This document shows positions 1 to 40,400 of a stretch of DNA of 64,000 nt, piece after piece; the first letter of the stretch is position 1; every line of letters begins with the position of its first letter. The notes under the pieces are model-generated. The model made no database searches. It was given only the letters and a program-made list of their open reading frames with translations, and was not told the DNA's origin. Made by a program: the position numbers and the translations under genes. This stretch comes from Pontederia crassipes. Taxonomy: Eukaryota > Streptophyta > Magnoliopsida > Commelinales > Pontederiaceae. Location: positions 54,518,203-54,582,202 of the forward strand of contig CM060187.1 of the NCBI GenBank assembly GCA_030549335.1. The letters run 5' to 3'.

Positions 1-1374
1 TTAATTATTAATATTAATAAATAATAATTTATTTTATGATAAATATTTTTTTATGAACTATTATCATAATCACAATTCAATCTTAATAATAAATCAATTA
101 TCAATGATTAATTATACTACTAATATGAATATAAATATCTAATATAATAATAATAATCACAGATAACTATAATCAATAACTTTACTTTTTACTAAACCGG
201 AGTCGGATGGGGTGAAATTAGGTCGTGTCCAATCATTTCTCAATCCAATTCGATTTTTTACATTGGAACCAGAGTCATGTTTGTTCATTAGATAGAAATC
301 GGGTTGGATCCATCAAGATATGATCCACGCCAAAATGATTCCAATTTAATCCATCCGATATTGAATAATGGAGCCGGATGAACTTTTGCAAATGTCAAAA
401 GACCACTTTATAAAGCTCTATATAGAAGATGAAACTCCTACTAAACCTACTTTGTCATGGCATTTTCTAGTCATTGATTAAAACATCCTTGCTACTAGTA
501 GAAAACTTCCAAACACTAAGAGAATGAAGTGAACTTTTTTTTTTAAAAGCCCCTTCAGGAATTCTGGGTCAGATGGTTACCAACTTATCTTCTACTAATA
601 CAATTAGAGAATAGTAGGTAATTTATTAGTATACTTTGTATTCAAGATCTTCATGAAAAGAATAAAGTATGAAATAAGGAAAAAGACAGTCGACGAATGA
701 GACTTGTCCAGTAGCAATGGCACTTACGAGCATCCAACTAATCACCACAATCATTTCTTCGAGATTGTAGGATATCATGTCCAAGCTTATCAGGCCGTGA
801 CAAGTAAGCAAGTAAGTTTCATCAAAGGTAGGAGGATCCACAAGAGATAATCCATACCATGAGTAAGATAAAGAGAACCAAACTATTCCTCCCAATTAAG
901 GTGGATATACTCAAGGCATTTGATCAACTTATTATCTAAGAATCAAAATCTCTCTCCAATATTTGCATCCTAATCATTTCTTGCATTATATCTCCTACCA
1001 TACATGCCCTATGGAATGGGAATGAAATAGAATGGTTCAAAATATAGTGCTATATCCGGAAAGGATGACCCATTGTCACCTTATATCATTGTGTTATGCA
1101 TGGAACATCCAACATACTTGATACAAGAAGCAATCGACAAGGGATAATAAACAACAATGAAGGCAGGAGCAAACGATCTTACGATCTCTCATCCCTTCTT
1201 CGAAGACAATATTCCTTTTCACATCTGAAACAAACTCCATATTCCCTTTACAAATCCAAATCTTAACAAATAAAATATCTGAGTCTTCAATGCATGCTTG
1301 TTTAAGGACGCCAATTTATCAGTCTGAGAGTTCCAATCATCCATGACAGATTACGCAAGGTGCACTCCTCAAGG
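1..1374. other. intergenic, no gene seen
   Basis: This stretch is AT-rich and has no reading frame with recognisable protein similarity. The 89-codon minus-strand frame at 626-895 has no family I know and ordinary composition, so I do not call it. The 190-400 part has patches such as cggatg and gggttgg that look like the remains of a hAT-type MITE, but no ends could be defined. Confidence 0.5.
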
Positions 1375-1529
1375 GATGTTTGGTACGAGGTCACTGGATT
1401 GCAGAACAAATAATTTCGTTCTCAATATATTCTTGTCAATATTTTTATTTTTTCTAGTTCTCGAAATGACGATGAATGAGTCTCACACAATCTTAAAAAA
1501 TGATGTTTGAATCCCCGTACCAAACACCG
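1375..1529. mobile_element. short MITE with GTTTGGTACG inverted ends
   Basis: The left end reads gatgtttggtacgagg. The right end, read on the other strand, begins ggtgtttggtacgggg, so about 13 of 16 bases match as terminal inverted repeats around a core of roughly 125 bp. Ends beginning GGTGTTTGG are typical of PIF/Harbinger (Tourist-like) MITEs. I could not fix a target-site duplication, so the family is an inference. Confidence 0.45.
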
Positions 1530-1863
1530 CCAGAGTGCATGATCAAAGGATTTGGAGGTTCCTTTTTTGCGAACCACCCATAAGACTAATTACAAGAGAG
1601 TAGAGACATAATAGCAGATTGGGGGCCTCAGGGGAATGTGTTGCATGCCTAAAACATCACTGATCCAACATTGCTGCACATAATTATTTATTTTTGCACA
1701 TATTCGAATCGCTACCATTGATTGAAGCCTGGTTTTCATCTAATCTGTGGAACATGCATGGACAACAAGGAAAACCCAGCTCCAGCTGGGCAGTACTTAT
1801 CGGAGCAACCTGCTGGTGACACCGGAAATCGAGATGTCGAGCCAGCAAACATCATTCCTATAT

Positions 1864-1866
<3 letters not shown>

Positions 1867-1898
<32 letters not shown>
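1867..1898. repeat. (TA)n microsatellite
   Basis: An uninterrupted AT dinucleotide run of about 32 bp, followed by ttgtacatata. It is a simple repeat with no coding meaning. Confidence 0.95.
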
Positions 1899-1901
<3 letters not shown>

Positions 1902-2414
1902 ACATATAGTGCACGTCCTCCTGCCGTGAAATGGGCACTACCGTCGGTAGGTTGGATGGGGCTGATGCTTGTTTTCGCTCCTGAATAGATGAACCCCCAC
2001 TGGCCAGTGCAGGTATAATTTCTGTGAAGTGGCGGAGGAATCTGGATGGCCGGATTGATGTGTCACCTTTCAGTACTCTCCAAGAACTACAATACAATTA
2101 TGCATTCAACTCGCCGAGGGCGAGAACTACCATCCACGCATAATGGAATCAGACTCGCGAACCGCGATAGACCCGAGCTGGTACCGCAGGCGGGACTTCA
2201 AATTTTGCGACAGAAGCAAAGAGGACTTGCTTACAACCCGTCTTCCACAGAGACGGAGCTCATGGTTCCACCTCAAGCATTAGGAGCCCTTTGTTGGCTG
2301 ATGCAATGGGGTCCCCTCCCTCCTACCATGCCTGCATAATTTCATTGTAACCAAGGCGCTTCCCAACAATACTAGTCAAGAGGTAATTTGATCCATACTG
2401 TGAAGGTGATTCTA

Positions 2415-2770
2415 TGATGTTTGTCAACACAAATCCAATAAAAGAGTGTATGGATTACCAAATGTTCAGTTTGTCCCATACTGTTCGAAGGCATATAGAT
2501 TGTTAGGTAGGAAGGACCGTAAGGTGATGGTATATCTACAAAATAAAGCAATAAAGAAGACGAGAGATTTCCAAACAAAACATTAGCTCACATTCAAGTA
2601 GTATGAATGTGTTTGCATGGTGTTTGTCATAAGAAGACATTGCTCTGACAACCCAAAAAATCATGTATGGATTGCAAAATATTTGGTTTTGTCCTATGCT
2701 ATTTGAAGGCATAATGATCTTTGTAGGACTGTAAGGTAATGGTAATATACAAACTAAAGCAATAAAGAAG
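2415..2770. repeat. diverged direct duplication of about 150 bp
   Basis: Two similar blocks lie head to tail, at about 2415-2560 and 2618-2770. Both run through tgtttgtca, then gtatggatt, a cag/ggtttgtcc motif, gaaggcata, a gtaaggt step and the ending gcaataaagaag. The copies differ by many substitutions and small gaps, so the duplication is old. No coding potential is seen in either copy. Confidence 0.75.
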
Positions 2771-3376
2771 TCATTGGACTGGTTAAAAATACTAAAAGCC
2801 ATAAAAAATTAAAAATGTACTATCAATTGGCATCTTAGAAAGACCGGATATGTAATGTATTAATAGACCTTAGCACATAATAAACCATAAAATATGATTA
2901 GCACATCGCTGCTTTAAAAAGTTATCATAAATAGTATTTTTTTTACTCCTCCCAATGAGAAAATTCACCCTCGACAAGATCGAACTGCGACGCAACAGAG
3001 GCAGATGCAAAAATCGAAGGAATGAACAAGGCAATTTGTCAAACATCAAATCTGCAGTTTATTTGATAGCTTCATTCACTCAAACAATGAAGAAAATTGA
3101 CAGGGATAATGTTATACAGAAATAGCTAAAAGGTTCGATCTTTGACATGAATCCTAAGACAAATCATCAAATATAGAAGATCGAAACTTGCAAATTCTCA
3201 AGCTTCTCTCGTGTTGCGCCTTTAAGATTCAAACTTTATTACAGTTTGGGGCAATTGACAGAGAAGCATACACTGTCGCAATCATATTCTTAGAGCAAAA
3301 TTCCTCAAAGCAGAGCAGGCATAACGACTTACGCCCCGAAGAACTAAGCGGAGGCAGCGCGTAAGAAATTATTTTG
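2771..3376. other. intergenic, downstream of the DUF538 gene
   Basis: AT-rich sequence with no gene recognised. It lies immediately 3' of the minus-strand gene ending at 3377 and must hold its 3' UTR and polyadenylation signals. I could not single these out with confidence. Confidence 0.4.
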
Positions 3377-11800: not shown

Positions 11801-14800
11801 GTACTCGTCCCTCACAGCCCTGTGTGCATTGTAAACGCACAAATCACTCTTCTGATAGATGCTGGGAAAAATTTGGGAAACCTACTTGGGCTAATCAAGC
11901 ATCCTCTTATGATCATGCTGCAAAAGCCACTGGTCATCATAACTCATCATCTCCCTTTTAGCTATCTCAGGAGGATTATACTCGTTTGATGAGTATACTG
12001 CGACCTTCTACCACTACTGATTCTACAGTTGCTGGATTGGCAGACACATCAGGTAGTACTGCCCATTTGGCATCTATTAGTGCTTACGAAAAATGGGTGA
12101 TTGATTCTGGTGCTTCTTATCACCTCACTGGGAATGGTACTACTCTATCACATTCTGCCCCAACTAATATAATTAAATCTGTTCGCCTGGCTAATGGAAG
12201 TTTTTCTCCAGTTATATCGGTTGGAACTATTGAGTTTTCTTCTAAACTCAAGCTTACAGATGTTTATTGTGCTCCTGAGTTTCCTTTAAACATATTATCT
12301 GTTAGCAAGCTATGTAAGCAATTGAAATGCAAGGCTATTTTTGATGAACATCATTGTTATTTTCAGGACATCCAGACGATGCAAGTGATTGGTGGGGGGT
12401 ATGAGAAGAATGGACTTTACTACTTAGTTATTCCTGCTCTGTTTGCTGGTGCTGCCTCCATTTTCGTTGATCATGTCCTATGGCATCGTCGTCTGGGTCA
12501 TCCTTCTTCCTCCGTGCTGCGTGAAATGTTTCCCAAACTTCCTAATAACCTTCAGATAAATTGTGAAGCTTGTTAGCTTAGGAAACATCATCGTACCTCA
12601 TATCCTCAACGTTCTGATCCTTCAAGTACTTCTATGTTTAATATGGTTCACTGTGATGTTTGGGGTCCTTGTCCTGCTAAAAGTATTGCTGGTCATCGTT
12701 ACTTTGTTGTCTTTGTCGATGACTATAGTCGTTTGTCTTGGATATTTTTAATAAAAAGTCGTTATGAGATCTTGAGTATTCTCAAGCATTTCTTCAATGA
12801 GGTTCAAAATTTCTATTCATCTACTGTTAAAGTTTTTCGATTCGATAATGCCTTAGAATTTGTGCAGCGTGAGCTCCAGTCATTCTTATCCTCCAACGGG
12901 ACTATTCATCAAACCACTTGTGCTTACACTTCTCAGCAAAATGGTGTTGCTGAGAGAAAACTTCGTCACATCCTTGATGTTGCTAGGGCCCTTCTCATTC
13001 ATATGAAAGTTCCCAAGCACTTTTGGGGGGATGCAGTTTTAACTGCAGTTTATCTCATCAACCGTGTTCCCTTCTCTGTTCTTAAGGGAGAGGTTCCATT
13101 TAGTTTGCTCCATCCAAACATGGATGTTTTCCCTCTTCCTCTTCGAATATTTGGTTGTGTTTGTTTTGTTCACTTTTTTAATATTGCTGACAAACTCTCT
13201 CCTAGGGATGTTAAGTGTGTCTTTTTGGGTTACTCACGTATCCAAAAAGGGTATTGTTGCTACGATGTTGTATCCAAAAGATACTATGTTAGTCGGGATG
13301 TCACTTTCTTTGAAAAAGAGAGCTTTTTTGACTCAATGGGAGATTCTATTGTACTTGAACCAGCCCCTTTACAGGTTTATCATCGAAGAAGTAAGCCACC
13401 TATGCCTATCCCTTTACCTATTGTTCCTGTTACTGACTAGGCACTCGAGCAGGCTTCTTCGCAGTCCTCTTCTAATCCACAACCAGAGCTTGCACCGGAT
13501 GCTCCTTTGCCCACAAGTGGGTATGCTGATGATAATCGACCAATAGCTTTGCGGAAGCTTGTAAGATCTTGTACTTTACATCCTATGTCTCACTACACTT
13601 GCAGAATTACATAATTTTTCTTTGGCTCTAATGAGTACAATTACTCCCAAGCACTATCTTGAGGCCTTACATGATCCAAAATGGAAGCAAGCTATGGATG
13701 ATGAAATTAATGCGTTTCTCTCTCGGGATACATGAGATTTAGTTCCACGACCTGCAAATACAACTTAAGTTGATTGTCGATGGGTATATACTGTTAAATA
13801 TCATCCTAACGGCACTGTGGACAGATTCAAAGCTCGACTTGTTGCCAAAGGTTTCACTCAAACTTATGGAGTGGACTATTTTGAGACTTTTTCTCCTGTT
13901 GCTCGTCTTAGTTCAGTTCGGATTCTTATTTCTATTGTTGTCAACAAAAATTGACCCTTACATCAGCTTGATATCAAGAATGCATTTCTATATGGTGATT
14001 TAACAGAAGATGTATTCATGTCACAACCTCCTAGCTATGAGGTTGAGGGGGAGTATGTGTGCAAACTCAAGAAGGTTATTTATGGTCTTAAGCAAAGTCC
14101 TAGGGCATGGTTTGATAAACTTAGCGGGGAGATAAAAAAAATTGGTTTTTCTCGTTGCACTGCTGATCACTCTTTTTGTAAGAAAGAAAGAGCACGGGTG
14201 TGTTGTACTTGTTGTTTATGTGGATGACATGATTCTCACAGGTGATGACACTGAAGGAATTCAGGAAACTAAAAATTTCTTACAAAAGATCTTTGTCACA
14301 AAAGATCTTGGAAAACTCCGCTACTTTCTTGGAATTGAGGTTGCGAGAAACTCACAAGGGTTGGTCCTCTCTCAAAGAAAATATGTGATGGATATTCTAG
14401 AAGACGCTGGTATGTTGGGTGCTAAGCCATCATCCATTCCTATTAATGGGTTTACCAAATCAAGGTCTAGTGATGATCCTCTTTTTGATGATACTAAAAG
14501 ATAGAGGAGCATTGTTGGAAAACTTTTATACTTGACAGTCACAAGACCTGATATTAGTTTTACTATTAGTCGTGCTAGTCAATTTATGGAAAAATCGCAT
14601 TATAGTCATTGGAATGATGTTTGTCTTATTCTGAAATATCTTAAAGGCTCTCCTAGAAAAGGTTTATATTTCAAAAACAATGGGCATTTGGATTTTTCGA
14701 CTTACTCGGACGCTGACTATGCTAGTTCTATTGAAGATAGACGTTCCACTACAGGTTTTGCTACTTTCTTGGGAGGCAATTTAGTCACATGGCGCAGTAA

Positions 14801-17800
14801 GAAATAATAAGTTGTTTCTCGATCAAGTGCTGAAGCTGAATACCGAGCCATGGCGCATACTGCTTGTGAAGTGATATGGATTATTTTGTTACTTGCTGAT
14901 TTGGGTTTTCCTATTGCACTTCCAATTCCAATGTATTGTGACAATCGCTCTGCAACCTATATAACATCCAATCCTGTATTCCATGAGAGGACGAAGCACA
15001 TTGAGGTTGATTGTCACTTCATACGTGATGCTGTTACTAAAGGAAAGATTATTACTCCCTACATTTCTTCTGAACTACAGTTGGCTGATATTTTCACGAA
15101 AGGGTTACCTAAGAAACGCCACAACTTTCTACGTGACAAGTTAGGCATGATTGATATCTATGCTTTAGCTTGAGGGGGAGTGTTGAAGAATCTCCAAATC
15201 TGATAGAGATTCTGGAAATAAATATTTATGTGTTGAAGATTCTCCAAATCAGATAGAGATTCTGGAAATAAATATTTAGGTCAATAAATATTTGATATGA
15301 TAAGAGAAATTGCTGGAGATAATTGAGGGCCAACAATTTCTCCATATACATTGTTATCAATAGTGATATGGAAAACAATATTTTCTTCTACACATATAAT
15401 TCCCCAGATGACATCATCTAGGCCATGGGCCACATAGGGCTCTAACAATAGACCCAACGTAGAGTTCAACATATAACACCATGAATATAAAGAGTTTGTA
15501 TAAAAGTCTACAACTCAAGGCCGACATAAGATAACTTGGACCGTGGGCCCGATCGATACATGTGCAATTCGTCTTCATCATGGGGCTTCCACTGTCGAGC
15601 TTAAGTCTTCTTCGTTCCTGCACGGATCCATGGGGCATAGGGGATTTCTCCTCCTGTTAGAGTATCTTGAGGCTCGTGCATGCTATGAACCTATAACATG
15701 AATTATACGTGTCATGGCATATGCAACAACAAACAACAACAACAACAACAAAGCCTTATCCCACTAGGTGGGGTCGGCTACATGGATCATACGCCGCCAT
15801 ATTCGTTGATCCATGTTCATGAGATTCGACAGGGTTTTACGCTGGCTGTCGGGGCCTAACACAACCCTCCTCCTTTATCCGGGCTTGGGACCGGCTATAA
15901 AACATAGGCGGAGTTGTGTCATGACATATGCATTGCAACATAATGGAACATAGGAAATATGTATGCTATGAGCTACATGCACTTTATATGGCATCCGAAC
16001 AATCATCGTGGTAAGGTAAGATAATCATATTACATCATTAATCATTATGCTATGGCATATTTTGCACTTATCTTGTTTACCTTTAACATCTTCATTCATC
16101 GCATCATATGAAAATAAAACATACATTTGCATCCCTTTAAATGCATACATCATCATCCTCATCGTTTCAAATCATTTCATCTTAGTCAACTTATGTGATC
16201 ATATCATCTTTTCATCTTTCATATTTAATTAGATAGCTTCTTATCTTGGTGATTGAGAAGTCCATGTTGACTCGTCGATTTTGGCTAGAGAGGTTGAGAT
16301 TGTTCCATTGGACACCAATCACTCTCACCCTTAGGTGAGGTCTTTGTTTCATGAGGAACATGACACTTAAACTAGCTAGTGCCATCATTGTTCCCCTCAA
16401 TTCGAATGATAACAACAAGATACCTTCGTCAATCCATCAATACATACAATCATTCAATACATGTGATAAATTTTAATCCTATTTAAGGTTGTCCAGGCAT
16501 TATAATTTTCATCGGGTAGGATCGAATCGATGAACTCGATGACTCGACCCGACCTAGGTTCGGGTCAGAGGTCGGGTCGGCCCAACCACAATCCAATGGT
16601 GGGTCGGGTACAGGTTGGGAAATCCCAAACCGAGTAAGCCCAAACTGACCCGATGATCCAATTTTATTATTTCTACTTTTTTATTTAATCCTAAGTCTAT
16701 ATTTGATTTAAAATTCTAAAAAATGATAAAATAAAATATTTTAAGAGTGGAAAAATATTTAAATATTTTAAAAACTTTTTATGTTTTAAAATAAATATTA
16801 AATAATTTAATAAAGTAAGAAAAAAAATTAAAAACAAAAAAAGGGTGGTCAGGTGACTCGACCACCTGACCTGACCCACCCTAACCCGGTTCCTGGCGGG
16901 TCGGATCAGATTTACCCCTCTAAATGGCTCCAACCCGTCTAGGTCGGGTCGGGTTTGTTCACGGGTCAAGTTCCCAACCCGTGAACACCCCTAGTTGTAT
17001 CCATATGAATCTCAGGGTAGTAGGTCAAATGGGTTGTGCTCATCTAAAGCTACGGGCAGATGGGCGAGTCAACCATCTAAAGCCATGAGCGGACTAGGCG
17101 AGTCTCATCCATTTGAAGCTGCGGATCGAGCCAAGTGCAGAATAGGCGGGTCACATCCGTTTGAATTATGCCAAATCAGGCAGGTTGTATATGCAGGTGG
17201 GCCATGTTGATTCTGTCCACCTGAATTTGTTTGCAAAGTATGATAATTCTAGTTATCATGTGGAGGAATTTGAGTCACATGGGGACTGTTAGAGTTTGAC
17301 TAGAATTCCTATTAGAATTTTGGTATTTAAGCGAAATTTATGGGTTATTAAATTAGAAATCTGTTTTTCTATTTTTTTAAGATAATGTTTTTCTATTTGA
17401 TTAGAATTTTGTTTATCATTGGAATTTGAGGTTTCTCCTTGGGGAAAAAAAATCTCAAAACTCGTCCCCAAATGAAAGTCCTTAGTTGTAACTCCCATTT
17501 ATGGGGCAGCTTTTGTTGCCCATCTGTCGATGAGCCTGAGGAAGACTCAATGACCTTTCTTATGGGAGGGCTTGAGAGTATTAGGTTCGTATAAAGTTTT
17601 GTTACCCGAACACGTAGTCCAATAAAGGGTGAACCTCATTAACAAATTTTTGGGTTTGCTTTGCCTGTGAATCTTCTTTCTCGTTCAACATTCAGAACAG
17701 ATTAGTATCAAACATACATGTTTTGGTACCATATGTAAGAATGATAATAGAAATTTTTTTTTTTTCATATATCAGCTAAGCTTATTAACTCCGCCTATAT

Positions 17801-19437
17801 TTTATAGCCGGTCCCAAGCCCGGATAAAGGAGGAGGGTTGTGTTAGGCCCCGACAGCCAGCATAAAATCCTGTCGAATCTTATGAACATGGATCAACGAA
17901 TATGACGTCGTATGATCCATGTAGCCGACCCCACCTATTGGGATAAGGCTTTGTTGTCGTCGTATATCAGCTAAGCTTATTATATTTCATAAATTTTTTG
18001 TTTTGCATCTCACTCCTTACATTTTATCAAAGGCAATTAGTACATATTGTTGTTGTCTATTGCTTCAAGTTCTGTGAGTACGAATCTATCTAGAGGTTAA
18101 CAAAATATTCTTAGATTCTTTTCTTATTTGACAGGTACTAGCTGAGTTGATGTTAAACATCGGGAAGAAATTGCCATCTGAACGGAGAAATTCTTATGGA
18201 ACATGGGCTGTGAGCGTATGCCAGACTACAACAGTAGAGAGTTCCATTGCAGCAAGGAGTATCATCTTTCTTGCAATCGATCTCCTCCCAGCTCCAACCG
18301 ATTTGTGTATTGCACATGACATGGCCTTGGAGCTGCTTAAAGTTATGGGGTCTGAAGATACTGATCCAGAAGAAAAGTCCAAGAAATTTCCTCTTATTAA
18401 TCGATCTACAAAGGATGAAATTTCAAAGTTATTTTTTCAAGTGGCTGAATCTTGTATTATTGATCTAGATTGGGGAACATCAAAAGTTAAGCTACTTTCT
18501 TCATGCAATCTTGAAAATCTTGGCGTGGAAAAGAGGTTTCCTTTTGGTGAAAGGTTACCTGGTCTTAATTTGGAAGAAGCGTTGTATTCAAGGTCTGAAG
18601 CCTTGGTTCTCTTGTTATCTTCCTTTGCAGAAATGAATCTCAAGGGTATAAGCACCAGACTCTAAAAGAACAATAATTTTGCTGCTCATGTAATGTATTC
18701 TTATGTGTTCTTTGATTTGCAGATTCTCAAGCTGAGCAACTACTGAAAATCTGTGCAAAGTTCTACAGGCTTTTAGCTCAGATGGCAAAGCTTAGAATCT
18801 CACCCAAAGGTACAAAGCAAATTTTACCTAGTACAAAGTTTCAGAAACTGGTAGAAGTGACTTGCAGAAGACTCACCAGTCCTCTATATGACTTTGTTGC
18901 TTTTGTACAAAGGGTAACTAACTCAACAATTGTGCATTCGCTTTTAACTTGAGATATTGGTTTACTATACTTTCTAATAAAGATATGTATTTATGTTACA
19001 GAATCAGCAAGAGAACACAAATGACAGGGGAATCATAAGCAAGATCAAAAGAAGAGAGTAAATGTATACCTGATTTGATTTTCCAAATTGAAGACTATGA
19101 GAAATATCTCATCCAACTGAGTAAACTGAGTAAAATCAATTTATTGAGGCATGCTAAACGCAGTACCGCAAGGGACTTCAAGATTTTGGAGACAAAAAAA
19201 ATTGCTGTGGAAGAAATGACACCTGGACCTGAACCTTCCAAGGTCAATTCTGCATCTGACAATGAAACTAGTGGGGAATCTCAAGGTTCAGATATGTTAA
19301 AGGAGGTTTCCTCCCCTGCAGCCAATGATGACAATGCCGAGGATTCCGAACGTGATCAGGAAGAACAGGAGATGATCATAAGAAAGAAGAAAGCTAAGAC
19401 GAGCAATGTGGTGGAGGACTCAGATACTGACTCATAA
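5803..19437 (+). CDS. FANCI: Fanconi anaemia group I (FANCI) homologue, 13 coding exons
   Basis: FANCI pairs with FANCD2 as the monoubiquitinated clamp of DNA interstrand-crosslink repair. Exons, all with GT-AG joins that keep phase: 5803-6834, 6916-6997, 7078-7269, 7470-7534, 7618-7777, 7891-8136, 8244-8360, 8474-8665, 8751-8817, 8927-9879, 18135-18645, 18723-18913, 19002-19437. The product would be about 1,410 aa, near family size. Exon 6 carries [11 protein letters not shown], which aligns with the human segment bearing the ubiquitinated lysine, then an SQ cluster ([10 protein letters not shown]) like the human ATR-target cluster. The last exon has [19 protein letters not shown] and STARDFKI, the family's conserved C-terminus, then an acidic tail. 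Intron 10 is 8.25 kb and full of transposons. Oddities: the N-terminal frame (ATG 5803) and the rest of exon 1 are in different frames, switching between about 6040 and 6080 in a CT-rich tract. The last exon also changes frame near 19051-19060 in a GA-rich tract. Either assembly error or recent decay could explain this. Confidence 0.88.
10168..10335 (+). repeat. possible fragment of an old LTR, related to 17287-17690
   Basis: The block begins tgttagagtttga and ends near tttatcattgaaatttgag, followed by a cc-aaggggtagg step. The same order of words recurs at 17287-17450 in the same intron and orientation. The TG start and the repeated layout suggest long terminal repeat remnants of an older element now split by younger insertions. 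This is an inference from similarity only. Confidence 0.35.
10502..10808 (+). repeat. 5' LTR of the copia element
   Basis: About 307 bp, beginning tgttgaagaa and ending tctaca. Its first 50 bases are present twice in tandem. It is longer than its 3' partner, but the shared parts are nearly identical. Confidence 0.9.
15181..15392 (+). repeat. 3' LTR of the copia element
   Basis: About 212 bp, beginning tgttgaagaa directly after a purine-rich tract and ending tctaca before the second copy of the 5-bp duplication catat. It shows the same tandem doubling of its first 50 bases as the 5' LTR. Confidence 0.9.
15398..15725. other. intron filler with no defined element
   Basis: This belongs to FANCI intron 10, between the copia element and the first SINE. 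It is richer in GC than the rest of the intron (for example catgggccacatagggctc) and reads like the interior of an older repeat. I could not find ends or coding similarity. Confidence 0.4.
15726..15915 (-). mobile_element. SINE (Au-like, GTT-tailed), minus strand
   Basis: Read on the minus strand it starts aactccgcctatgttttata, passes through ggtcccaagcccggataaag, ggagggttgtgtta and a tcgaatc word resembling a pol III B-box core, and ends in the tail tgggataaggctttgttg with a GTT run. It is flanked by a 17-bp duplication, gtgtcatggcatatgca at 15709-15725 and the same with one change at 15916-15932. The sequence type matches the widespread plant Au SINE group as I remember it; that identification is recall, not a search. 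Confidence 0.85.
15933..16482. other. intron filler, no element defined
   Basis: AT-rich FANCI intron 10 sequence with many cat- and atc-rich words. I see no coding frame and no clear repeat ends here. Confidence 0.4.
16483..16994. mobile_element. hAT-like non-autonomous element (MITE)
   Basis: The right end, read inward on the minus strand, is ctaggggtgttcacgggttg, followed by repeated gggtcgggt words. The left end ttaaggttgtccaggc matches it loosely, at about 12 of 16 bases. The core is an AT-rich block of about 200 bp between two GC-rich gggtcgggt arms. This layout is a familiar plant hAT MITE type. I could not find a clean 8-bp duplication, so the left boundary is uncertain. Confidence 0.55.
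17287..17690 (+). repeat. possible solo LTR, tg...ca, 404 bp
   Basis: It begins tgttagagtttga and ends gttcaaca, the TG-CA form of a long terminal repeat. Its first 160 bp resemble 10168-10335. A gggga tract lies just upstream. No internal retroelement domains were recognised between the two blocks other than those of the younger copia element, so this may be a solo LTR or the end of an eroded element. Confidence 0.4.
17788..17962 (+). mobile_element. SINE (Au-like) with perfect 20-bp duplication
   Basis: It has the same structure as the copy at 15726-15915, but on the plus strand: actccgcctatattttatag, the cccaagcccggataaagg block, the tcgaatc word, and the tail ending gctttgttgtcgtcg. It is flanked by the identical 20-mer tatatcagctaagcttatta at 17768-17787 and 17963-17982. 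The perfect duplication marks a recent insertion into FANCI intron 10. Confidence 0.92.
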
Positions 19438-20332
19438 GGATGATGCGTCATATTTATGCATGACCAGGGGGATATCTTTTGGACTGCTAGTTGATGATAC
19501 AGTGAAATACGATCAGAATATTAGATACTGTGGACGCAAGACTTAAATAATACATATCGCTGATGAAGTGATAATAAATACACATCTTTCTGATTCCGTC
19601 TGCTCTCTCCATACCCAGATCTCAATCATTAGATTCTGACCCCCCCCCCCCCCCCCCCCCCCAACCCCCCAACCCCCACCCCCACCCCTCCTCATTTCAG
19701 TTGCTCTAATTTTCTTATCTTGAAAGACTTTTACTGTAACTCTTTTTGGAATTCTGTACTTCTAGTTGATTAAGAATATTTAAATATTATATGGATCAAC
19801 TTATTTTAATCCAAAAGTAAAAAAAATGTTAACAGCATTGAAATACTATATGAATTAATTTCTCTTAATTCAAGAGTAAGAAATATGGAGCCATACGAGC
19901 TCAAAGTATGCCAGTGTGCAAGGCCACAATCGCTGCCTGTGTTCTCATTCCTCTTGTTTATCAGAAGTGAACTTATGATAGATGTCGCAGAAGCTGAAGT
20001 AGGACTGCCTCGGAAAACACAATTTCAAAGGACTTTTTCCTGGTATACATAGATAAGTTTGCCCATAGTGTTAGTAATCAACTTGTATTAATTATAAGTT
20101 TAAATTTAGATATTTTTTATCTATCGTGGTATTGATCTACTATAAATAAGAAGGACAAGTCAACATTTTATCTTTTTTCATAAACATAAAAACATTCTCA
20201 ATAAAATTGTTTTTCATATTTTAGTAAATACACTCATAGAGAGCGTTTCAACAATTATCCAGATGACGTACAAGTGGTAAAACTTAATTTCAACACAATC
20301 GTAATTTATATTTAATTATACAATAAATACTG
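19438..20332. other. intergenic between FANCI and SINE/LC8, with a 23-base C run
   Basis: It includes the FANCI 3' UTR side. A run of 23 C at 19640-19662 is followed by imperfect C-and-A repeats to about 19690. The rest is AT-rich with no reading frame of note. Confidence 0.6.
19640..19662. repeat. poly-C tract
   Basis: 23 consecutive C, extended by aaccccccaacccccac-type repeats. Such tracts are error-prone in sequencing, so the length is uncertain. Confidence 0.9.
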
Positions 20333-20502
20333 AACTCCGCCTATATTTTATAGTCGGTCCCAAGCTCGGATAAAGGAGGAGGGTTGTGTTAAGTCCCGAC
20401 AGTCAGCATAAAATCCTGTCGAATCTTATGAACATGGATCAACGAGCGTCGTATGATCCATGTAGCTGACCCTTCTAGTAGGATAATACTTTATTGTTGT
20501 TG
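20333..20502 (+). mobile_element. SINE (Au-like), older copy
   Basis: It has the same order of words as the other SINEs (aactccgcctatattttata, cggataaaggaggagggttg, a cctgtcgaatc word, a GTT tail) but more substitutions, for example in the tail. The duplication is not clear: tatac begins both flanks, then they diverge. I read this as an older insertion, upstream of the LC8 gene. Confidence 0.85.
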
Positions 20503-20709
20503 TATACGACAAATTTTCTCTGCATCATTTATCTCAAATTTTGTCTTCTGTCATTACACATCTTAAACATTTTTCCTGTTGATACATTCCATTCTGTAAA
20601 AGGGAAAAAAAACTGTAAATACTTGTGATCTATAAAGTGGCAACAATATCAAATTCGCCTTCCTTTTTAAGCACGCCACCACTTTTCGCCATTGGATTCC
20701 ACTCTCTTT

Positions 20710-20830: not shown

Positions 20831-23800
20831 ATGGGGGAGGAGATCAAGAGCGCTTCTGGCGCCACTGCAGCTGGCGGCGCAGCGTCGGGGCAGGCGTCGC
20901 CCAAGATCGTCTTGAAGAGCGTCGATATGAATGAGACCATGCGGGAGGAGGCCTACCACGTCGCCCGCGCCGTACGTACATCCTTCCCAGTGGAATGTTT
21001 ACTTTGAAGTGGTCTTCATGGCTTTTGATCCCTTGTTGTGAATTATGAACGCATCTTCTCGATTTCTGATGTTTTCTTGTGTGGAAATCGGAAAAACAAA
21101 CAAACAAACAGGCGTTCGAGAAGTACGCGATGGAGAAAGAGATCGCGGAGTACATCAAGAAGGAGTTCGATCGCAAGTACGGCCAGACCTGGCACTGTAT
21201 CGTCGGCCGCAACTTCGGTACTGTAGTCGATCTCTTTGTTTTAGTCAGAAACACTTACATTTATTTGAATAGCATTCCCAGCTGATGCTGTCACTATGCG
21301 CCGTTGCTAGGATTAGGGTGTAATCGTGTATAAGGTCCATTGTGGCCATTTTACCTGATCTTCTTTTCAGCTACTATGCTAAAATTTGGGGATTTTGGTT
21401 GGTTAGCGTGAACAATATACATTTTGAAGATAGATTCTTAAGAATGGTAGCAAATGCAACAATTGAGTTGGATCAAGCTTGGAATTGTATGCTATATATT
21501 TTTCGATATACTTAAATATGTTTCTTTTATATAGCCAAATGGACGAATATTTCTTCATTGAATTACGAGTTTCTGAGCTGCCTAAATGCTTTTAAGATAC
21601 GGCAAGGAGCAGTTAAAATGCTTAAATATTTCCAGTGTAATGTAATGCTTTTCCTTTTTGCCTTCTCAGATTCACCTGAATGTGCTTACCTCTGTTTTTA
21701 CTTTTTATGTTGTTAATTATGTAGAGTCAGTCCATGCTTCACATTTCATGCATTACTGACACAAACTGCATGTCTATACAATTTTTTTCCTTTTGGTGAT
21801 GAAGCTTCCAATTAGTATTTTCTTTCTTTTGATGGAAACCTCTAGTTAAGTTCATTAGATGCGCCAGTAAGAAGAGTGGATCAAATAATCTGGAGTCCGA
21901 TTAAAAGAAGGAGAGGGAGGTCAAGGCGGACACTTGGCGAACTAATAGAGCAAGATCTATTGGTGAATAATATATCGAAAGGTTTGGTTACTAATAGAGC
22001 AGAATGGCGTCGTATGATCCATGTAGCCGACCCCACCTAGTGGGATAAGGCTTTGTTGTTGTTGTTGATGGAAACCTCTAGTTAGTGTTGTACTTTGTTT
22101 CTATTTTGCACATAAAATGATTTGACTTTCAATGTATCATCATTAAGTCACCAATTAACATCATCATTTAGTTTCGCATAAATGTGGTACAGTTTATACT
22201 CGTAAAATGACATCAGACAGCTGGCACTAGCAGTTGTAGTTGTTTCTATTGTCTCAACAATCCTTCTTGATTCGATTTAAATTTGTCTTACTGTTTTAAC
22301 TACATTCGATTGAAGAACATGTACCAGTTTGGAATATTCTGATTGACCATTGTTTGTTGGTGGTTTGGATTTCTTTTACCCATAGGTGAGGACTGTTGCT
22401 CATGTTTAACTTCTATGCATCACCTGATCAACTAATCACAGTAGTTTGATAATCCTTTTATATGTAGTGAACTAGTGAAGTTTCCCATCATTTCATAACA
22501 GAGATATACATCTGCATCACATGATGTTCACATTAGTAACCTTTATGAAAGGTTTTTCCTACTTTATGCACTGTTTCCTTAATTTTAATTGCTTCCTGTT
22601 TTTCCGATTCTTCACGATCACTTGTCAACCTATATCTTCCTGAATACTTTTTTTGCTTAGTTGTCACATGAAACCTTCCCTTCTGTTCTATATGTTCATG
22701 CACGTATTAAAAGAAGCTTTCTCAAAAAAAAATATCTCAAGGAAATAAAAGGTTTTAGATTCTCCTAACAAAAAGGTTGAAGATTAAAGCAGTTATGTTT
22801 GTATAAGTTGGAGATGTATATACACCAAATTTCAAAGATGTCATCAAGTGGTTAATGGCCCTGTCACTTGTAAATTGTTTGTGTGATACTTTCTTTTGAG
22901 TGTTGTTTATACTGATACATTTCTCAGATCTTTATTTATGTGCTGTCTACGGATCACTTTTGGTCAGTTCTTTTTTCCGTTGAATAGCTTGGGTTCAAAG
23001 CATCATATCAGATAATCTGGGTTGAGTCATTCTGACTACAACATTGCCCTTCAGCAAGTGATTACTTAGTTTTAAATTGCCTGAGCTTCTTTTTTACTTG
23101 ATTTTATCTTAGCCCAATATGAGCTTTTAATTATTCTTTGATTTCTTTGACTACTTGTGATTGTCATCTCTTCAACAACTTAGGACCATTGTGTGAATAA
23201 ATATCCTATCCCATTGTTTTTTAAAGACGTTTCTGGGTACCAATTAAGGTCACTGGTGTTTTGCTTCCCATTTCTGACATGTTAAGCCTACACATTGGTG
23301 AATGTTTAATGCACCTTAGAAAATAAGATAGTACAACTAAAATTTTAGTATCATTATATGAAGTTAATTTTGTTATTGTCATGATTTTGGCATCTCATTT
23401 GCTTGTCCCTTTTATCTTTCAATTCTAATGAGGTGAGGTAATGACATTCATTGACTACATTTCCTTATGAAAAGATACTTCAAAGAAGTGGAAGAAGAAG
23501 AACAAGAAGGCAATATACTGTTGCACGATGGAAGGTTTATTGATCTGTTAATTGCTGACTGATCAGGATAGAATTGTATGAAGTGACATGATTAATTTAT
23601 TTATGTTTTATATCTTTTTTTAATATCAGCTATTGATAAATAAAATATTGTAGGTGCACATTTCATTCGCATTCTTATTGTCTAAATTAATGTGTTTATT
23701 GAACATATTATTGGCTGGATGTAATTCTGAGGACTTCCTCCTCCTGTTTGTGTTTGTATTCTTGCTTCACTTTACTAAAACATTCTCAGCAAGAAAAAAA

Positions 23801-31500: not shown

Positions 31501-34500
31501 TGCTTTGGCTATTGGGTACACAAAACTGTCAGCAAAGGATATGTAAGCTGTCTACCTTCATTTTTTCCGTTTTAATGGTTTCTTGTTTTTTCATGAAAAG
31601 TTAAATTTACTTGCATAAACTTGATTACTTCAAAGTGGGGGGAAATGTTAGCTGGAGGCTTCTTCTATCACAGTAGTACAAAGCAAGGATATTGGAAATC
31701 ATTTCATTTTTTTGCCAACAAAGGCTTAAGGGTTTTCTTTCTATAGTAATTTTCTGGGGTAACATGTACACAAGTGAGTGAGATTAGTGCATTTGAAAAT
31801 ATCCAATTATCTTGAATCTTCTTTGTGAGAACCAATACATTTTATTTTTTTCCTCTCAGATAAGCGATTGAATTTCATAAATTCTTTGTTTGCCAATTGT
31901 TGATATCTCATTCAGTCTTTCCATAAACAAATTCTCTATCTTCGATGTCAGTTAAAATGACTTGTAGTATCGTGAATGACGTGAAAACAGCAATAAAATG
32001 CTGCGCCCTAGTGTGGGAAAAGGGAGGTTTTAAGGGGTTGAATACCCTACACGTATGAATACCCCCACACAGGTGAGTACTCCAACATCACAAGAAAACT
32101 TCGAATAAGCTTTAAAATTTATAAGTCCTCAACATACACGATGAGATTGCAAGACTGCAAGTATACTGTAGTCGATGTAGTATTTGAGGTTCGTCCCAAG
32201 AGAGAGCGCAGTCGTCCCTATGTGAAATACTTTGCTGAAAACGGGGAAAGAAAATTTTAGTAACAAGGGCATGGAAAAATAGTCTAAAAACTTAATAGCT
32301 TTGAAGTAATAGCTTTGAAGGAATCCGACCAACCTTTCGGCCCATATCAAATTCCCACCGATGATAAGTCCCTCTCTGTAGCCGACCCCACCTAGTGGGA
32401 TAAGGCTTTGTTGTTGTTTGTTGTTGTTGATAAGTCCCTCTCTGGCGAGATTCCTTTTGTTAAGTAATGGCGAACTTATTCCACTAAACTTCAGGCAATT
32501 AGCTCTAGATGCAATGAAGCACTATCCCTCAGTGACATCTATAGTTGTAGCTTGGCCTTTGTACAGCCTCTCGGCCCATTTGCAGAGATGCAAGGAATAG
32601 ATTCCTTCTCGGTTGGATACCACTGATTTGATAGGTTCCAGAGCGAGTTCATTAACAGAGAATGACAATAAAGACGATTCAGGAGCCACCCAAGTTCACC
32701 TCTCGATATGTTCGAAATGTGCAACTAATGACCTTTAAAACGTTCCTAAACCATTGTCCTGCCTCTCGGCACGCATATGATGCACAGGTCATCGAACACC
32801 CTCTCGGGCGAAGGCCATGAACGCTACGGAAAGCTTGAACGAAAAACTTATCACCTTACTAAATCAGAAATCAGAACAGAAATAACATGAAACTCAACCC
32901 ACCACGATGAACAAACTTTACTTCCGCCCCATGCCTCTCGGTGATATGAGCTAAAATAGAGGATTAGATCTCCCTCTCGGGCATAGTAAGATCGATTCCT
33001 CAACTCCACAAAAACACATTTAACAATCTAAGTAAAAATTAGGAAGATAGCGATGCAATGGAAATGGAAAACAGGAAATCGGCATGTTGCATATCATAAA
33101 ACCAAAAGATAAAGTAAGAACTAAACATCCCGAATCAGACTCCCCCAGCCCGAGCTGGATGATTAGTTACACATCGATAAGTAGAGTGACACAACACTCA
33201 AAATCATGCACTGTTCCATCAAGCGATAGTGTTTAGAAAGAAAAACTCTTCTTCTTCCTCTCCCCTCCGTGCTCGCCGAAAAACCCCCTGGCACTGATAC
33301 TTTTTCCCAATGATAGATGATTCCCCCTTTTGTTTGCCTTTTTGACGTTTCTTAAACCTCTCCCCTCCAGCTGTCCGGTACCTTTCTCTATTTTGTCTTC
33401 TAGCACCCCCCAAAATGTCCCTAGGAAGTTTCCTTCCTGCCACTAGTGAAGGGCTAGTGAAGGGGTTGTCGGTTTGTCCCCTGGCACAACCTCCTGTTTG
33501 CTGTTTGGACCGACTTTATATGGTGAACCAGCTGCCCTCTTTCAGTTAAATCACCCAAGTGGCAAAATGGGGTCAGATGTCGTTCAGATGTGTGCTGCTT
33601 CTCCGGTGGTCGGTTAAGAATTCCTGCGGGGAAACTGGGCACCACTTCGGTGGTCAGAGAAGTGCAATTAAGCCTTTGATGACAAATATAGAACAGATGT
33701 GGAAAATCATGAAGTTCGCGAATTCAGAGAAGAAACATGCATTCTAAGCTGAAACATAACAAATATGTAAAATGAATGCACGCCGGATATGAATAAAAAC
33801 ATGTGAATAGTTTCTCCACATCATAAAACACATACAACAACAACAACAAAGCCTTATCCAACTAGGTGGGGTCGGCTACATGGATCATACGACGTCATTC
33901 CACTCTATTAATATATTCGTTGATCCATGTTCATGAGATTCGACAGGGTTTTACGCTGGCTGTCGGGGCTTAACACAACCCTCCTCTTTTATCCGGGCTT
34001 GGGACCGACTATAAAACATAGGCGGAGTTATCATAAAACACATAAATGATGGTTTTTGTTGGCTAGGTATGAATTTGACTATTTCCTTCGGAATCACCAC
34101 TATGGTTTTTTTCAGATCTGTGATGGGTAATAGATCACCAACAAAAATCCTCGTTTGTTCTTTAATTTCTAGTTGTCAACGATGGGGAGAAAGAACTCTC
34201 CCTCTCTCTCATTTTGTTTGTTCGGTACTTTTTATGAATTCTTCCAGTAGCATGTGTGTCTGTTAAGCCATTTTGCCATGTGTTGGTAAAGTGTTTCATC
34301 AATTTTTTGGTTAGCACAGGCATTTAAATGTTGTTGCAAACTACAGCAGTTGCACCATCATATCAATTAATTCATCAAATATAACTTGGGCTTTTCTGGC
34401 ACTATTCTCTTTTGGTTTTCATGTCATTTCTTGATTGTTTGCCATCTTATAATGCTTGCATAAAGAAACTACATGTAATTCTGTGGTACCCAAGTCCTGT

Positions 34501-37405: not shown

Positions 37406-40400
37406 ATGGCCCTGCGACGCCTCTTGCGATCGCCCTCGCTCCGCCATCTCCGCCCTACGCCACCGCTGCTGGAGCCTTGCGTCGCCGCCGGTGAGCTCGT
37501 CCGTCGGCCGACTCCGCCCTCTGAATCATGCCGTCAGATGAGTTCGACTCTCCGTCGGCGCTTGGCCCCAAGCTCTTTCCCGCTGGTTTGCTCCTCCTCA
37601 TTCCTCGACCTCGAACCTCGAATAGTTTTCTTTGCACTTCCTAAAAGTGGTTCCTTTTCGTGGGCATTTTGTTGTTCTGAACCGGCGAGTAGCTCGAGGG
37701 ATTGTGTGCGAGGATAGGGGCTCGAAGCCTGTCGAATCAGGCGTGGATCGATGTCCCCGCGGGGGAGGTGGTGGAGGTTCCATTGGCGCAGACTGGTGAA
37801 GGGATCGCCGAGTGCGAGCTCCTAAAGTGGTTTGTCAAAGAGGTAAAAGTTGGGACCTTTTTCTGTTACTTCTGGTGCAATGTGTTTGCGACCGGGCTAC
37901 TACTCTTCGAGCTGGTGAGGAGGTACTTAAGATGATCTGGATTTGTGTTTGCATCAGAGTTCCTTCGCTGTTGACTCGTTTCGCATATGATGTTTCCTTG
38001 TGTGAAAGATTTGTTTTGGTCATTGTGTTGGTATATGCCTGTGTTAAATCCTATTTGTTTTGTGGCGTTAAATGATGTCATGTTTAAGTTGATTTGTTAC
38101 TTCGTGAATTCACTCGATTTATTTTATCTCTTGGTCGTAACATGGATAATTTAGGAAGAAAATTAGTATTAATTCTTGAGTGTACCAATTTCGAACTGAT
38201 ATCATGTCAAATGTTAAGTTAGTATCTTTTCTAAAACTTATAGACATCAACACAATCACAAGCCATTTTGAACATAACTCCTAGAATGTACAAATTTATC
38301 AGACTTTTGCATCATGATTTGTTTCAGGTTGGCCTGCCTAAATGCAGTTAGACTATTTACTATGTTATTCATTGCATGAAAACTTAGTCACAAGTGTGAT
38401 TCCAATTTTTCCATTCAGGGTGATCATGTAGAAGAATTTCAGCTGCTTTGTGAGGTGCAGAGTGACAAAGCAACTATTGAGATCACCAGCCGTTTCAAAG
38501 GACGAGTTCTTCAGATGCTTTATACACCTGGTGATATCGTGAAGGTCGGGGGAGGGGGTATTTTCTGTTTCAACTGTTCACATCCTTTTGTGAGTAAGCT
38601 TCATGTTTAACTTTCTGGTTGCAGGTTGGTGAAACTTTGCTGAAAATACTTGTTGGTGATGCTGATGGTCATGGGATTAATATTCCTGTTAATTACGAGT
38701 TAGGCAAACCTGAATCTCAGACTTCGTCAGCTGAAACACATGGAACTTTGTCCACTCCTGCTGTTAGGAATCTTGCAAAGCAGTATGGTCTAGATATAAA
38801 TGATATTCATGGAACTGGAAAAGATGGGAGAATTCTGAAAGAAGATGTTCTGAGATATGCTGCTTGCAAGGATGTTGATAATAAACAACCCTTTTCAACA
38901 CCTCCAGATACAGATGAAAGGAAAGATGGGTTTGAGCTATTCAAGGAAAGGAAAGCATTTGATACCAACATGGTAGATACATTTTATGAGGATAAGGCTA
39001 TTCCTCTCAGGTATTGGAGTTTTGTATAATTAGATTAATTGAATGTTATTATCTATTGGTTAGATCAAATATTGGAGGTATACACTATACACTATACACT
39101 ATACAAGATTCATCCAATTAGTAATTTCCTTTATGTGAAAATCTGCAAGGGGTTCAGTGCTTTCTTTATTAGTTATTTTATTCTAAAACAGTATGAACCT
39201 TCCTTTGATGGTTAAGTTTCTCCTTTAATGATATTAACATCATTGATTTGGGCCATGGAAACAGCCTCCCGAAGAAAGCAGTTGAAGTCACATACATATG
39301 CTCCCTTCCATTTTATATTATTCGCAGAGCACTTAATGATAGTTACTCTGAATACAGTGAACATAGTGAATTTTTCAACCTGTTCACTACCTGAACAACA
39401 ACAACAACAACAACAAAGCCTTATCCCACTAGGTGGGGTCGACTTAATATCTATGTTCATAAGATTCGACAGGGTTTTACGCTGGTTGTCGGGGCCTAAC
39501 ACAACCCTCCTCTTTTATCCGGACTTGGGACCAGTCAATACAAATAACCAAAAAAAAAAAAAATAAAACAATAGGCAGGCTCCAGTAGGTACTCAATTGA
39601 ACCATGAATCCATGATCATCAATTGGTAATAGTATCTAAATCCAGTGTGCAATCAACCTGAATCTTCCTGTTTCACTTGGTGAAATTTTCCAATCCTAGT
39701 TAAAACAGCTAGATAGCACCAAAAAACACAAGGACGACAACAACAACAACAAAGCCTTATGCCACTAGGTGGGGTCGGCTACACAAGGACACAATACTTA
39801 AAATGGTTTTTTATGTAACATATGCTCTATGAAGATAATTGAACTGAACTCTGACATCACAAGTAGAGACGTTAAAGAACTGTGTGGACCTTACATTGTC
39901 ACCCAGTTCTTCTACCAGGGGAAATGAACATCCTCCTGAATTTTTCTTCCTTATAAATGTTATTATCTGTTGACCACAATGAATTTGCTAGAAGCCTTTG
40001 TAAATTTAGGGTTCAAGACATTCACACAATTGGATGGTTTATACCGAAAGTTTTGAAATTTAAAGCAAATTTTATTCTATCGTCCTATATTCTCTCTCTT
40101 ACAAATTGATGTATTGCTCAATATAATAATTTTGAAGTAGAAATCACATCCCTACTCTTCAGAGAGAAAAAAACACATCCTTTCTTCTTTGGATTGTTTT
40201 TCCAATCCTGATTCATCATGCAGATGTTGGTAGCAGAGGCAGCATCGAGCCTATTATCTACCTCTCATTTTTCTCTTTCTTCAACACAGTGAATTTAAAA
40301 CTTGTTCTCCATTTTTTTCTTGGCTTCTTTCTTCAAGTCTCAGGCTAGCTGTTTTCAGAGCTTGCTTCTTCACCCATTAACTATTTCCACTCTTTTAAAT

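What the first reader, a model, noticed from the sequence alone, without database searches (positions are those of the whole stretch)
21849..22064. SINE family and a LINE share one 3' tail, including the LINE's last codons and stop
Seen: the LINE fragment in the LC8 intron ends [19 protein letters not shown], and its DNA from cgtcgtatgatcc through the stop to gggataaggctttg and the GTT run is the same as the 3' ends of the SINEs at 15726, 17788, 20333 and 33835. Known: SINEs borrow partner LINE machinery by copying its 3' end. Inference: the partner of this SINE is this LINE, and the SINE tail is literally LINE coding sequence plus 3' UTR. Having both partners in one window makes the match direct.
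Basis: partly seen in the sequence, partly recalled or inferred. Interest (0 to 1): 0.72.

Follow-up and report, generated by a model that had tools for sequence, protein, structure and literature searches.

The report
Mini-LINEs made by skipping LINE's middle
In this plant genome the supposed SINEs are short copies of a LINE, joining its ribozyme-like 5' end to its last codons and 3' tail, and they seem to be made afresh again and again across a hairpin predicted between the start and stop regions of the LINE RNA.

Summary
Window 21849-22066 is a clean 5'-truncated LINE insertion with an 18-bp target-site duplication, and its last codons, stop and 3' tail match the SINEs. The 39 other LINE copies scored genome-wide carry the same 3' end, so it is no chance fusion. 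But the tail is only half of it. The SINE head is the 5' end of the same LINE: a twister-P1-like ribozyme, leader and first codons (97% identical), about 3 kb upstream of the tail. So the SINE is the LINE with its middle removed. It also does not behave like one SINE family: 72 mapped short copies on one contig show 47 junctions, and 23 copies carrying the exact head of the youngest-looking LINEs show 20. Junctions cluster where the start region (LINE 99-112) is predicted to pair with the end of the ORF (3112-3126), a helix with core pairing probability 0.93-1.0 in two folded full-length RNAs. Best explanation: reverse transcriptase repeatedly jumps across the base of this helix, leaving out the ORF; a minority of copies then multiply. 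Short internally deleted LINEs and RTE twister heads are known; repeated formation at a helix-set hotspot, in a plant, I did not find described.

The parts
21831..21848 (+). target-site duplication, left copy (right copy 22067-22084)
   Evidence: exact 18-bp repeat
21849..22066 (+).
17788..17963 (+). short copy: LINE 1-116 joined to LINE 3106-3167 (2-nt ambiguity); target-site duplication at 17768 and 17963
17782..17841 (+). twister-P1 ribozyme-like 5' end of that copy, including 5-6 nt of flank
   Evidence: 66.7 bits, E 6e-13, Rfam gathering score 67.2
15736..15914 (-). short copy: LINE 1-116 joined to LINE 3106-3170, same junction as 17788; twister match at 15861-15920
20334..20503 (+). short copy: LINE 1-112 joined to LINE 3109-3167, a different junction (from BLAST; the junction script failed on it); twister match at 20329-20387
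33834..34028 (-). short copy: LINE 1-118/119 joined to LINE 3094/3095-3170 (BLAST extends the tail to 3091), a third junction; twister match at 33975-34034
39401..39532 (-). short copy, 5'-truncated: LINE 23-106 joined to LINE 3127-3170; no twister match at E 0.01
32377..32424 (+). tail-only insertion (LINE from 3124) with 16-bp target-site duplication at 32363 and 32429
39737..39783 (-). tail-only insertion (LINE from 3124); 10-bp direct repeat at 39726 and 39781

Best explanation
[quoted passage not shown] The LINE RNA carries a twister-like ribozyme at its 5' end and folds so that its first codons (99-112) pair with its last codons (3112-3126), closing the ORF as a 3-kb loop. During target-primed reverse transcription the enzyme starts at the TTG tail, copies through the 3' arm of this helix, goes mostly 0-25 nt (sometimes more) into the loop, and then jumps to the adjacent 5' side, a few nt past the 5' arm, and copies to the 5' end. 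The result is a 150-200 bp insertion with both LINE ends and no ORF. Shown: both LINE ends, junction diversity, head haplotypes matching those of LINE copies, junctions at the base of a strongly predicted helix, an RTE-like insertion signature. Inferred: that the jump is made by the reverse transcriptase, that the helix forms in the plant and guides the jump, and that the ribozyme cleaves and sets the 5' end.
For: Both ends: in L009, L024 and L028 (and 5'-truncated L017) the SINE head lies 2.99-3.00 kb upstream of the tail on the same strand, at 95-98%. Sample of the first 100 exact heads on C1: of 99 oriented, 13 run on into the LINE ORF and 78 are head+tail; 72 mapped with 3 or fewer mismatches give 47 junctions. 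Identical heads, different junctions: 49 pairs among 64 copies, only 4 sharing a junction. For the youngest-looking LINE haplotype, 25 of 37 non-LINE places on C1 were examined and gave 23 short copies with 20 junctions. Hotspot: 60 of 72 5' breakpoints lie at 112-121 and 60 of 72 3' breakpoints at 3096-3112; 62 of 72 keep both helix arms whole. Helix: core pairing probability 0.93-1.0 in L028 and L009, two closely related copies; the 5' region's strongest partner among 597 LINE windows is this 3' region. Same machinery: in 26 short copies with a clear target-site duplication, T is first in 21, and T is 65-73% at -11 to -9, like the signature described for plant RTE (PMC13295347, introduction read). 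Jumping ability: 3 of 73 intact 5' ends carry a partial second head.
Against: Shared junctions are commoner than random pairing of breakpoints predicts (46 distinct against 55 expected, 0 of 5000 simulations), and same-junction copies have more similar heads (2.4 against 3.9 differences, 0 of 5000 permutations), so some short copies do replicate as families. No inserted nt was called in any of the 72 (small ones could be scored as mismatches; 37 of 78 joins have no mismatch at all) and microhomology is at chance level (46 of 72 none, 63% expected), which suits end-to-end RNA ligation as well as a jump. The helix is not unique in strength: 5 of 2893 random LINE window pairs and 1 of 2000 shuffles are as strong, and for the 3' region the start region ranks only third of 608 windows, just behind two others. 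The helix varies too little between LINE copies for a covariation test (L024 and L115 differ in the 5' arm), and no activity was measured.
Confidence: 0.6

Rival explanations
1. Joined at RNA level: the LINE RNA is cut or degraded in its ORF loop, the two ends held by the helix are sealed by the plant tRNA ligase (as in tRNA or bZIP60 splicing, recalled), and the short RNA is then reverse transcribed.
For: No inserted nt called and chance-level microhomology at junctions; junctions just outside a strongly predicted helix.
Against: Junctions are imprecise by 10-25 nt, unlike known splicing of this kind (recalled). Partial double heads suggest that this enzyme can change template, which makes ligation unnecessary but does not exclude it.
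Confidence: 0.2
2. A genuine self-amplifying SINE of one old origin whose hairpin loop is eroded or rearranged at each round of copying.
For: Excess of shared junctions and head-junction association; most junctions could be carved from one longer founder loop.
Against: Short-copy heads match several LINE haplotypes exactly, including the youngest-looking one (20 junctions in 23 copies); some copies reach beyond a typical founder loop (LINE 179 in L110, 3057 in L076, 3074 in L159).
Confidence: 0.12
3. Full-length LINE insertions lose their middle later, in the chromosome, by a DNA-level deletion between the inverted repeats.
For: Short copies sit in their own target-site duplications and mostly have their own junctions.
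Against: It would have to hit about six in seven 5'-complete insertions (78 of 91) at one hotspot and spare the rest; identical junctions occur at separate sites.
Confidence: 0.04
4. The LINE captured the head from an older SINE, so the SINE came first.
For: Short copies outnumber LINE 5' ends (15,532 head matches, LINEs included, against 1,498 LINE 5' matches).
Against: The head contains the ORF start codons; by eye L155, L131, L067, L093 and L061 form a stepwise LINE series that the short copies track; twister heads are reported at RTE 5' ends in general (PMC7761336, passage).
Confidence: 0.04

Closest known systems
SIDEs (short internally deleted elements): R2 SIDE of Drosophila (PMC3414825), Persaeus of Lepidoptera (PMC6740152), TbRIME (named in both)
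   Same: 5' and 3' ends of one LINE without the middle; the R2 SIDE also keeps a 5' self-cleaving ribozyme; moved by the LINE's machinery. Persaeus is inferred to have arisen several times, and its authors already suspect a structural motif (short direct repeats) and template jumping.
   Different: Five Drosophila SIDEs are put down to four events, whose authors prefer DNA recombination; Persaeus origins are counted between clades. Here dozens of junctions occur within one genome, at the base of a predicted long-range helix, without excess microhomology, in a plant LINE.
Plant RTE LINEs and their SINEs (Ohshima 2013 PMC3747384; Nakatsuka and Ohshima 2026 PMC13295347)
   Same: SINE 3' end shared with an RTE LINE (tobacco TS SINE, about 100 bases, both ending in TTG repeats); T stretch about 10 nt before a target-site duplication starting with T.
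   Different: SINE heads are described there as coming from tRNA, 5S rRNA or 7SL RNA, and the legume SINEs end in T runs; here the head too is the LINE's own and the tail is TTG.
Twister ribozyme at RTE 5' ends (note 'in preparation' in PMC7761336)
   Same: Twister-type sequence at the 5' end of an RTE-like LINE, proposed there for 5' processing.
   Different: The passage I saw says nothing of short derivatives.

Membership tests
SINE (classical) | head from tRNA, 5S or 7SL RNA | tested here: not met
   No tRNA by ARAGORN in the window; Rfam finds twister-P1 in 4 of 5 window copies and 16 of 16 sampled loci; head is 97% LINE 5' end.
SINE (classical) | 3' end shared with a partner LINE | tested here: met
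SINE (classical) | copies descend from master elements and share one body | tested here: inconclusive
   47 junctions in 72 copies, yet some same-junction groups with similar heads.
SIDE | both ends from one LINE, internal deletion | tested here: met
SIDE | inserted by the LINE's machinery | tested here: met
   target-site duplications and T signature; inferred from sequence, not assayed
SIDE | propagates as its own family | tested here: inconclusive
   minority of shared junctions
RTE-clade LINE | single ORF with APE-type endonuclease and reverse transcriptase, very short 3' UTR | tested here: met
   L028 ORF 83-3142, RVT_1 E 4.1e-37, Exo_endo_phos E 4.6e-7; that this layout marks RTE is recalled
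RTE-clade LINE | groups with RTE in a reverse transcriptase tree | not tested
   no reference set fetched
twister-P1 ribozyme | match to RF03160 | tested here: met
   16 of 16 loci at E 2.4e-7 or better, but only 2 of 16 (L129, L061), 0 of 4 matching window copies and not L028 reach the gathering score
twister-P1 ribozyme | self-cleavage | not testable with these tools
   73 of 99 copies begin exactly at AACTCCGCC, where cleavage would fall in the alignment (cut position recalled)

The most novel reading that the evidence does not exclude
A LINE whose RNA ties its start region to its stop region so tightly that most of its 5'-complete insertions are ORF-less. A genome-wide 'SINE family' of (by extrapolation) over ten thousand copies is then largely not a family but a continuing by-product of LINE reverse transcription, and the helix may limit the LINE's own spread.
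Probability: 0.5. Interest if true: 0.85.

Novelty: new variant of a known kind. Interest (0 to 1): 0.72.

Why it matters
It would give a direct, countable record of reverse-transcriptase jumps in nature: thousands of junctions on a defined RNA. It offers a concrete route by which SINE-like elements arise from LINEs, and it warns that some annotated plant SINEs may be LINE by-products that track LINE evolution. It also makes testable whether long-range RNA structure steers target-primed reverse transcription.

Tried and rejected
Rejected: tRNA head. Rejected: splicing as a source of the junction, since breakpoints scatter over 10-25 nt on each side rather than at one donor and acceptor. Rejected: microhomology as driver (chance level). 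Considered: a ribosome at the start codon protecting the 5' fragment; it could explain the 5' cluster but not the 3' one (inference). No relatives elsewhere: a head 28-mer and 27-mer have no exact match in viral contigs or GTDB genome contigs, which are not plant collections. Literature: no held paper has a 17-letter stretch of the head or a 16-letter stretch of the tail as running text. Searches for SINE/RTE, internal deletion, twister and SIDE showed no plant SIDE in their listings, which were capped at 15-20 titles where more papers matched. Only open-licence papers are held; Nishiyama and Ohshima 2018 is recalled and was not found under the DOI I tried. The partition function for a third LINE (L024) did not finish. 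A sample of 16 unclassified tails gave 10 short copies, 4 longer LINE 3' ends and 2 tails truncated at 3087 and 3093; too few to map a stall site.

Rows dropped: one search lost 1 of 100 loci (head not at the expected place) and left 6 of 78 short copies out (cost above 3: L070, L072, L079, L118, L127, L134, among them a tandem and internal duplications). By eye 3 of the 8 'notail/other' loci (L083, L119, L151) are also short copies and L140 is a longer LINE deletion. One search used 64 of 72 (7 without an intact TATAG, plus L100, dropped). Searches cover 25 of 37 non-LINE young-haplotype places on C1, five of them fetched earlier. One search counted loops in 50 of the 100 places listed. The 26 target-site duplications were picked by hand from the 60 loci, and three starts were moved 3 nt to keep the TTG tail out; the first T can still be confused with the tail, the T stretch at -11 to -9 cannot.

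Full report
What was claimed. Tool checks confirm this. The fragment is bracketed by an exact 18-bp target-site duplication, so it is a single 5'-truncated retrotransposition product. A genome search scored 40 places for the LINE 3' end, the window's own included, at 97-100% identity, all running to the same tail; only the best 40 of 2349 first-look candidates are scored, so this is a lower bound.

The LINE. Twenty LINE loci were fetched. L028 is full-length, with an uninterrupted ORF at LINE positions 83-3142 (1019 codons) that holds an APE-type endonuclease domain (Exo_endo_phos, E 4.6e-7) and a reverse transcriptase (RVT_1, E 4.1e-37). It ends [12 protein letters not shown], with a 3' UTR of about 15 nt before the TTG run. 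I call it RTE-type from recall of the clade's layout and from its insertion signature; no tree was made. Of six copies checked, L028 alone has the whole ORF open; L017 and L027 are 5'-truncated but open to the end, and L009, L018 and L024 are broken.

The head is LINE too. Aligning the SINE at 17788 to the LINE loci gave two matches on the same strand in L009, L024 and L028, and in 5'-truncated L017: SINE bases 1-116 at the LINE 5' end (97.4% in L009 and L028) and bases 115-176 at its 3' end, 2.99-3.00 kb apart. The 5' ends coincide: LINEs L009 and L028 and the short copies begin AACTCCGCC, exactly so in 73 of 99 sampled heads. The head includes the LINE's start codons, so the short copies carry the first and the last codons of the ORF.

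The 5' end looks like a ribozyme. Rfam's twister-P1 model (RF03160) matches the LINE 5' end (E 3.4e-12), four of five short copies in the window (E 7e-8 to 6e-13; the fifth is 5'-truncated) and 16 of 16 further loci (E 2.4e-7 to 5e-15). Only 2 of the 16, and none of the others, reach Rfam's gathering score, so the assignment is strong but mostly below the curators' threshold. In the alignment the element starts at the point where twister would cut (position of the cut recalled). A review states that truncated but active twister ribozymes are conserved at the 5' ends of RTE retrotransposons, as work in preparation (PMC7761336, passages).

Not one SINE family. Whole-genome pattern counts, with reversed patterns as control (0 in these three), are: head 40-mer 15,532 (up to 2 mismatches); LINE 5' 40-mer 1,498 (up to 3 mismatches); tail 36-mer 31,942 (up to 3 mismatches). 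I took the first 100 exact heads on contig C1. Of 99 that could be oriented, 13 run on into the ORF, 78 are head plus tail, 6 were scored as having no tail and 2 as other; by eye three of the last eight are short copies with a deletion. Extrapolating gives roughly 12,000-13,000 short copies, assuming that the sample represents the genome. Of 72 short copies mapped cleanly to the LINE, 47 junctions are distinct. A gapped pattern found 7,783 hairpin-bearing junctions genome-wide against 1 in the reversed control, and the first 50 listed loops include 34 different ones, point mutations counted.

Repeated births. LINE heads fall into what looks by eye like a stepwise series of haplotypes (which is older is inferred), and short copies match several of them exactly. 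For pairs of short copies with identical heads, 45 of 49 have different junctions. The sharpest test is the youngest-looking haplotype: 1,217 exact matches genome-wide, 45 of the listed places on C1, of which 8 coincide by eye with LINE 5' ends listed. Of the 37 others I examined 25; 23 are head-plus-tail copies with 20 different junctions and tails identical or nearly so (0-4 mismatches in 46) to the LINE. Single-founder amplification without change at the junction does not give this. Against a pure version of my reading, same-junction copies do have more similar heads than chance, and distinct junctions are fewer than random pairing of breakpoints would give (46 against 55), so a minority of short copies have multiplied.

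Where the junctions fall. The 5' breakpoints are at LINE 112-121 in 60 of 72, and the 3' breakpoints at 3096-3112 in 60 of 72. These are the loop-side edges of a helix between LINE 99-112 (ACATGGATCAACGA) and 3112-3126 (TCGTATGATCCATGT, one bulged A). In the partition function of the whole 3.17-kb RNA of L028 and of L009, two closely related copies, its ten core pairs have probability 0.93-1.0. The strongest partner of the 5' region among 597 windows of the LINE is this 3' region; but 5 of 2893 random window pairs are as strong, and for the 3' region two other LINE windows score marginally better than the start region. 62 of 72 short copies keep both arms whole; three short-copy hairpins fold as expected (z -3.8 to -5.1), and the whole 17788 copy folds at z -3.0 with this hairpin. 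Microhomology is at chance level and no inserted bases were called.

Insertion chemistry. Of 49 short copies among the first 60 loci, 29 have a flanking repeat scoring 13 or more (my count; two of these are TA-rich). In 26 picked by hand, the first base is T in 21 and T is enriched at -11 to -9. This resembles the signature that Ohshima's group reports for plant RTE LINEs and their SINEs (introduction of PMC13295347 read). Three of 73 intact 5' ends carry a partial extra head, and L072 holds head-tail-head-tail in tandem, as might be expected of an enzyme that changes template, although L072 could also be two insertions.

Mechanism. I favour reverse-transcriptase jumping across the helix base (0.6). 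RNA ligation across the same helix (0.2) is the main rival, because the junctions are clean. Loop erosion in a true SINE (0.12), later DNA deletion (0.04) and SINE-to-LINE head capture (0.04) are less likely for the reasons given in the rivals.

Known and new. SINE/RTE partnership by a shared 3' end in plants, with TTG tails in tobacco TS SINE and its LINE, is in print (PMC3747384 passages; PMC13295347 passages and introduction). Short internally deleted LINE elements are a known kind, called rare; the R2 SIDE keeps a ribozyme head, and its authors note internally deleted L1 insertions in cell culture (PMC3414825, abstract, passages and discussion). Persaeus is inferred to have arisen several times in different moth clades, with direct repeats and template jumping suggested as cause (PMC6740152, passages and discussion). 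So repeated origin and template jumping have precedents. I found no report, in the capped listings, of such elements in plants, of an RTE twister-headed short form, or of continual formation within one genome at a helix-set hotspot; the library holds only open-licence papers, so this is not proof of absence. I therefore file it as a new variant of a known kind.

Noticed in passing
window 45155-46113 (+): A cluster of C/D snoRNA genes: snoR53Y and four snoR69Y-like copies in a row, three of the four above Rfam's gathering score.
   Followed up: no
window 55515-55947: Several weak microRNA-precursor matches on both strands, far below threshold; perhaps an inverted repeat such as a MITE.
   Followed up: no
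L066, L075, L084: A second, partial copy of the head (19-26 nt) directly before the full head, as if the enzyme jumped to another RNA after reaching the 5' end.
   Followed up: partly
L072 and L079: L072 is head-tail-head-tail in tandem; L079 repeats part of its head, suggesting jumps back on the template or nested insertion.
   Followed up: partly
L140: A LINE head followed after about 130 nt by reverse-transcriptase domain sequence, by eye: an internal deletion away from the hotspot.
   Followed up: no
L028 position 83: The youngest-looking LINE haplotype has an in-frame upstream ATG (CATG where others have CCTG), lengthening the ORF by four codons.
   Followed up: no
L065 and L087: Heads ending at about LINE 116-119 with no tail and unrelated sequence next; no target-site duplication found.
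   Followed up: no
L178 and L081: Heads followed directly by a TTG run without the rest of the tail: junctions at the very 3' end of the LINE.
   Followed up: no
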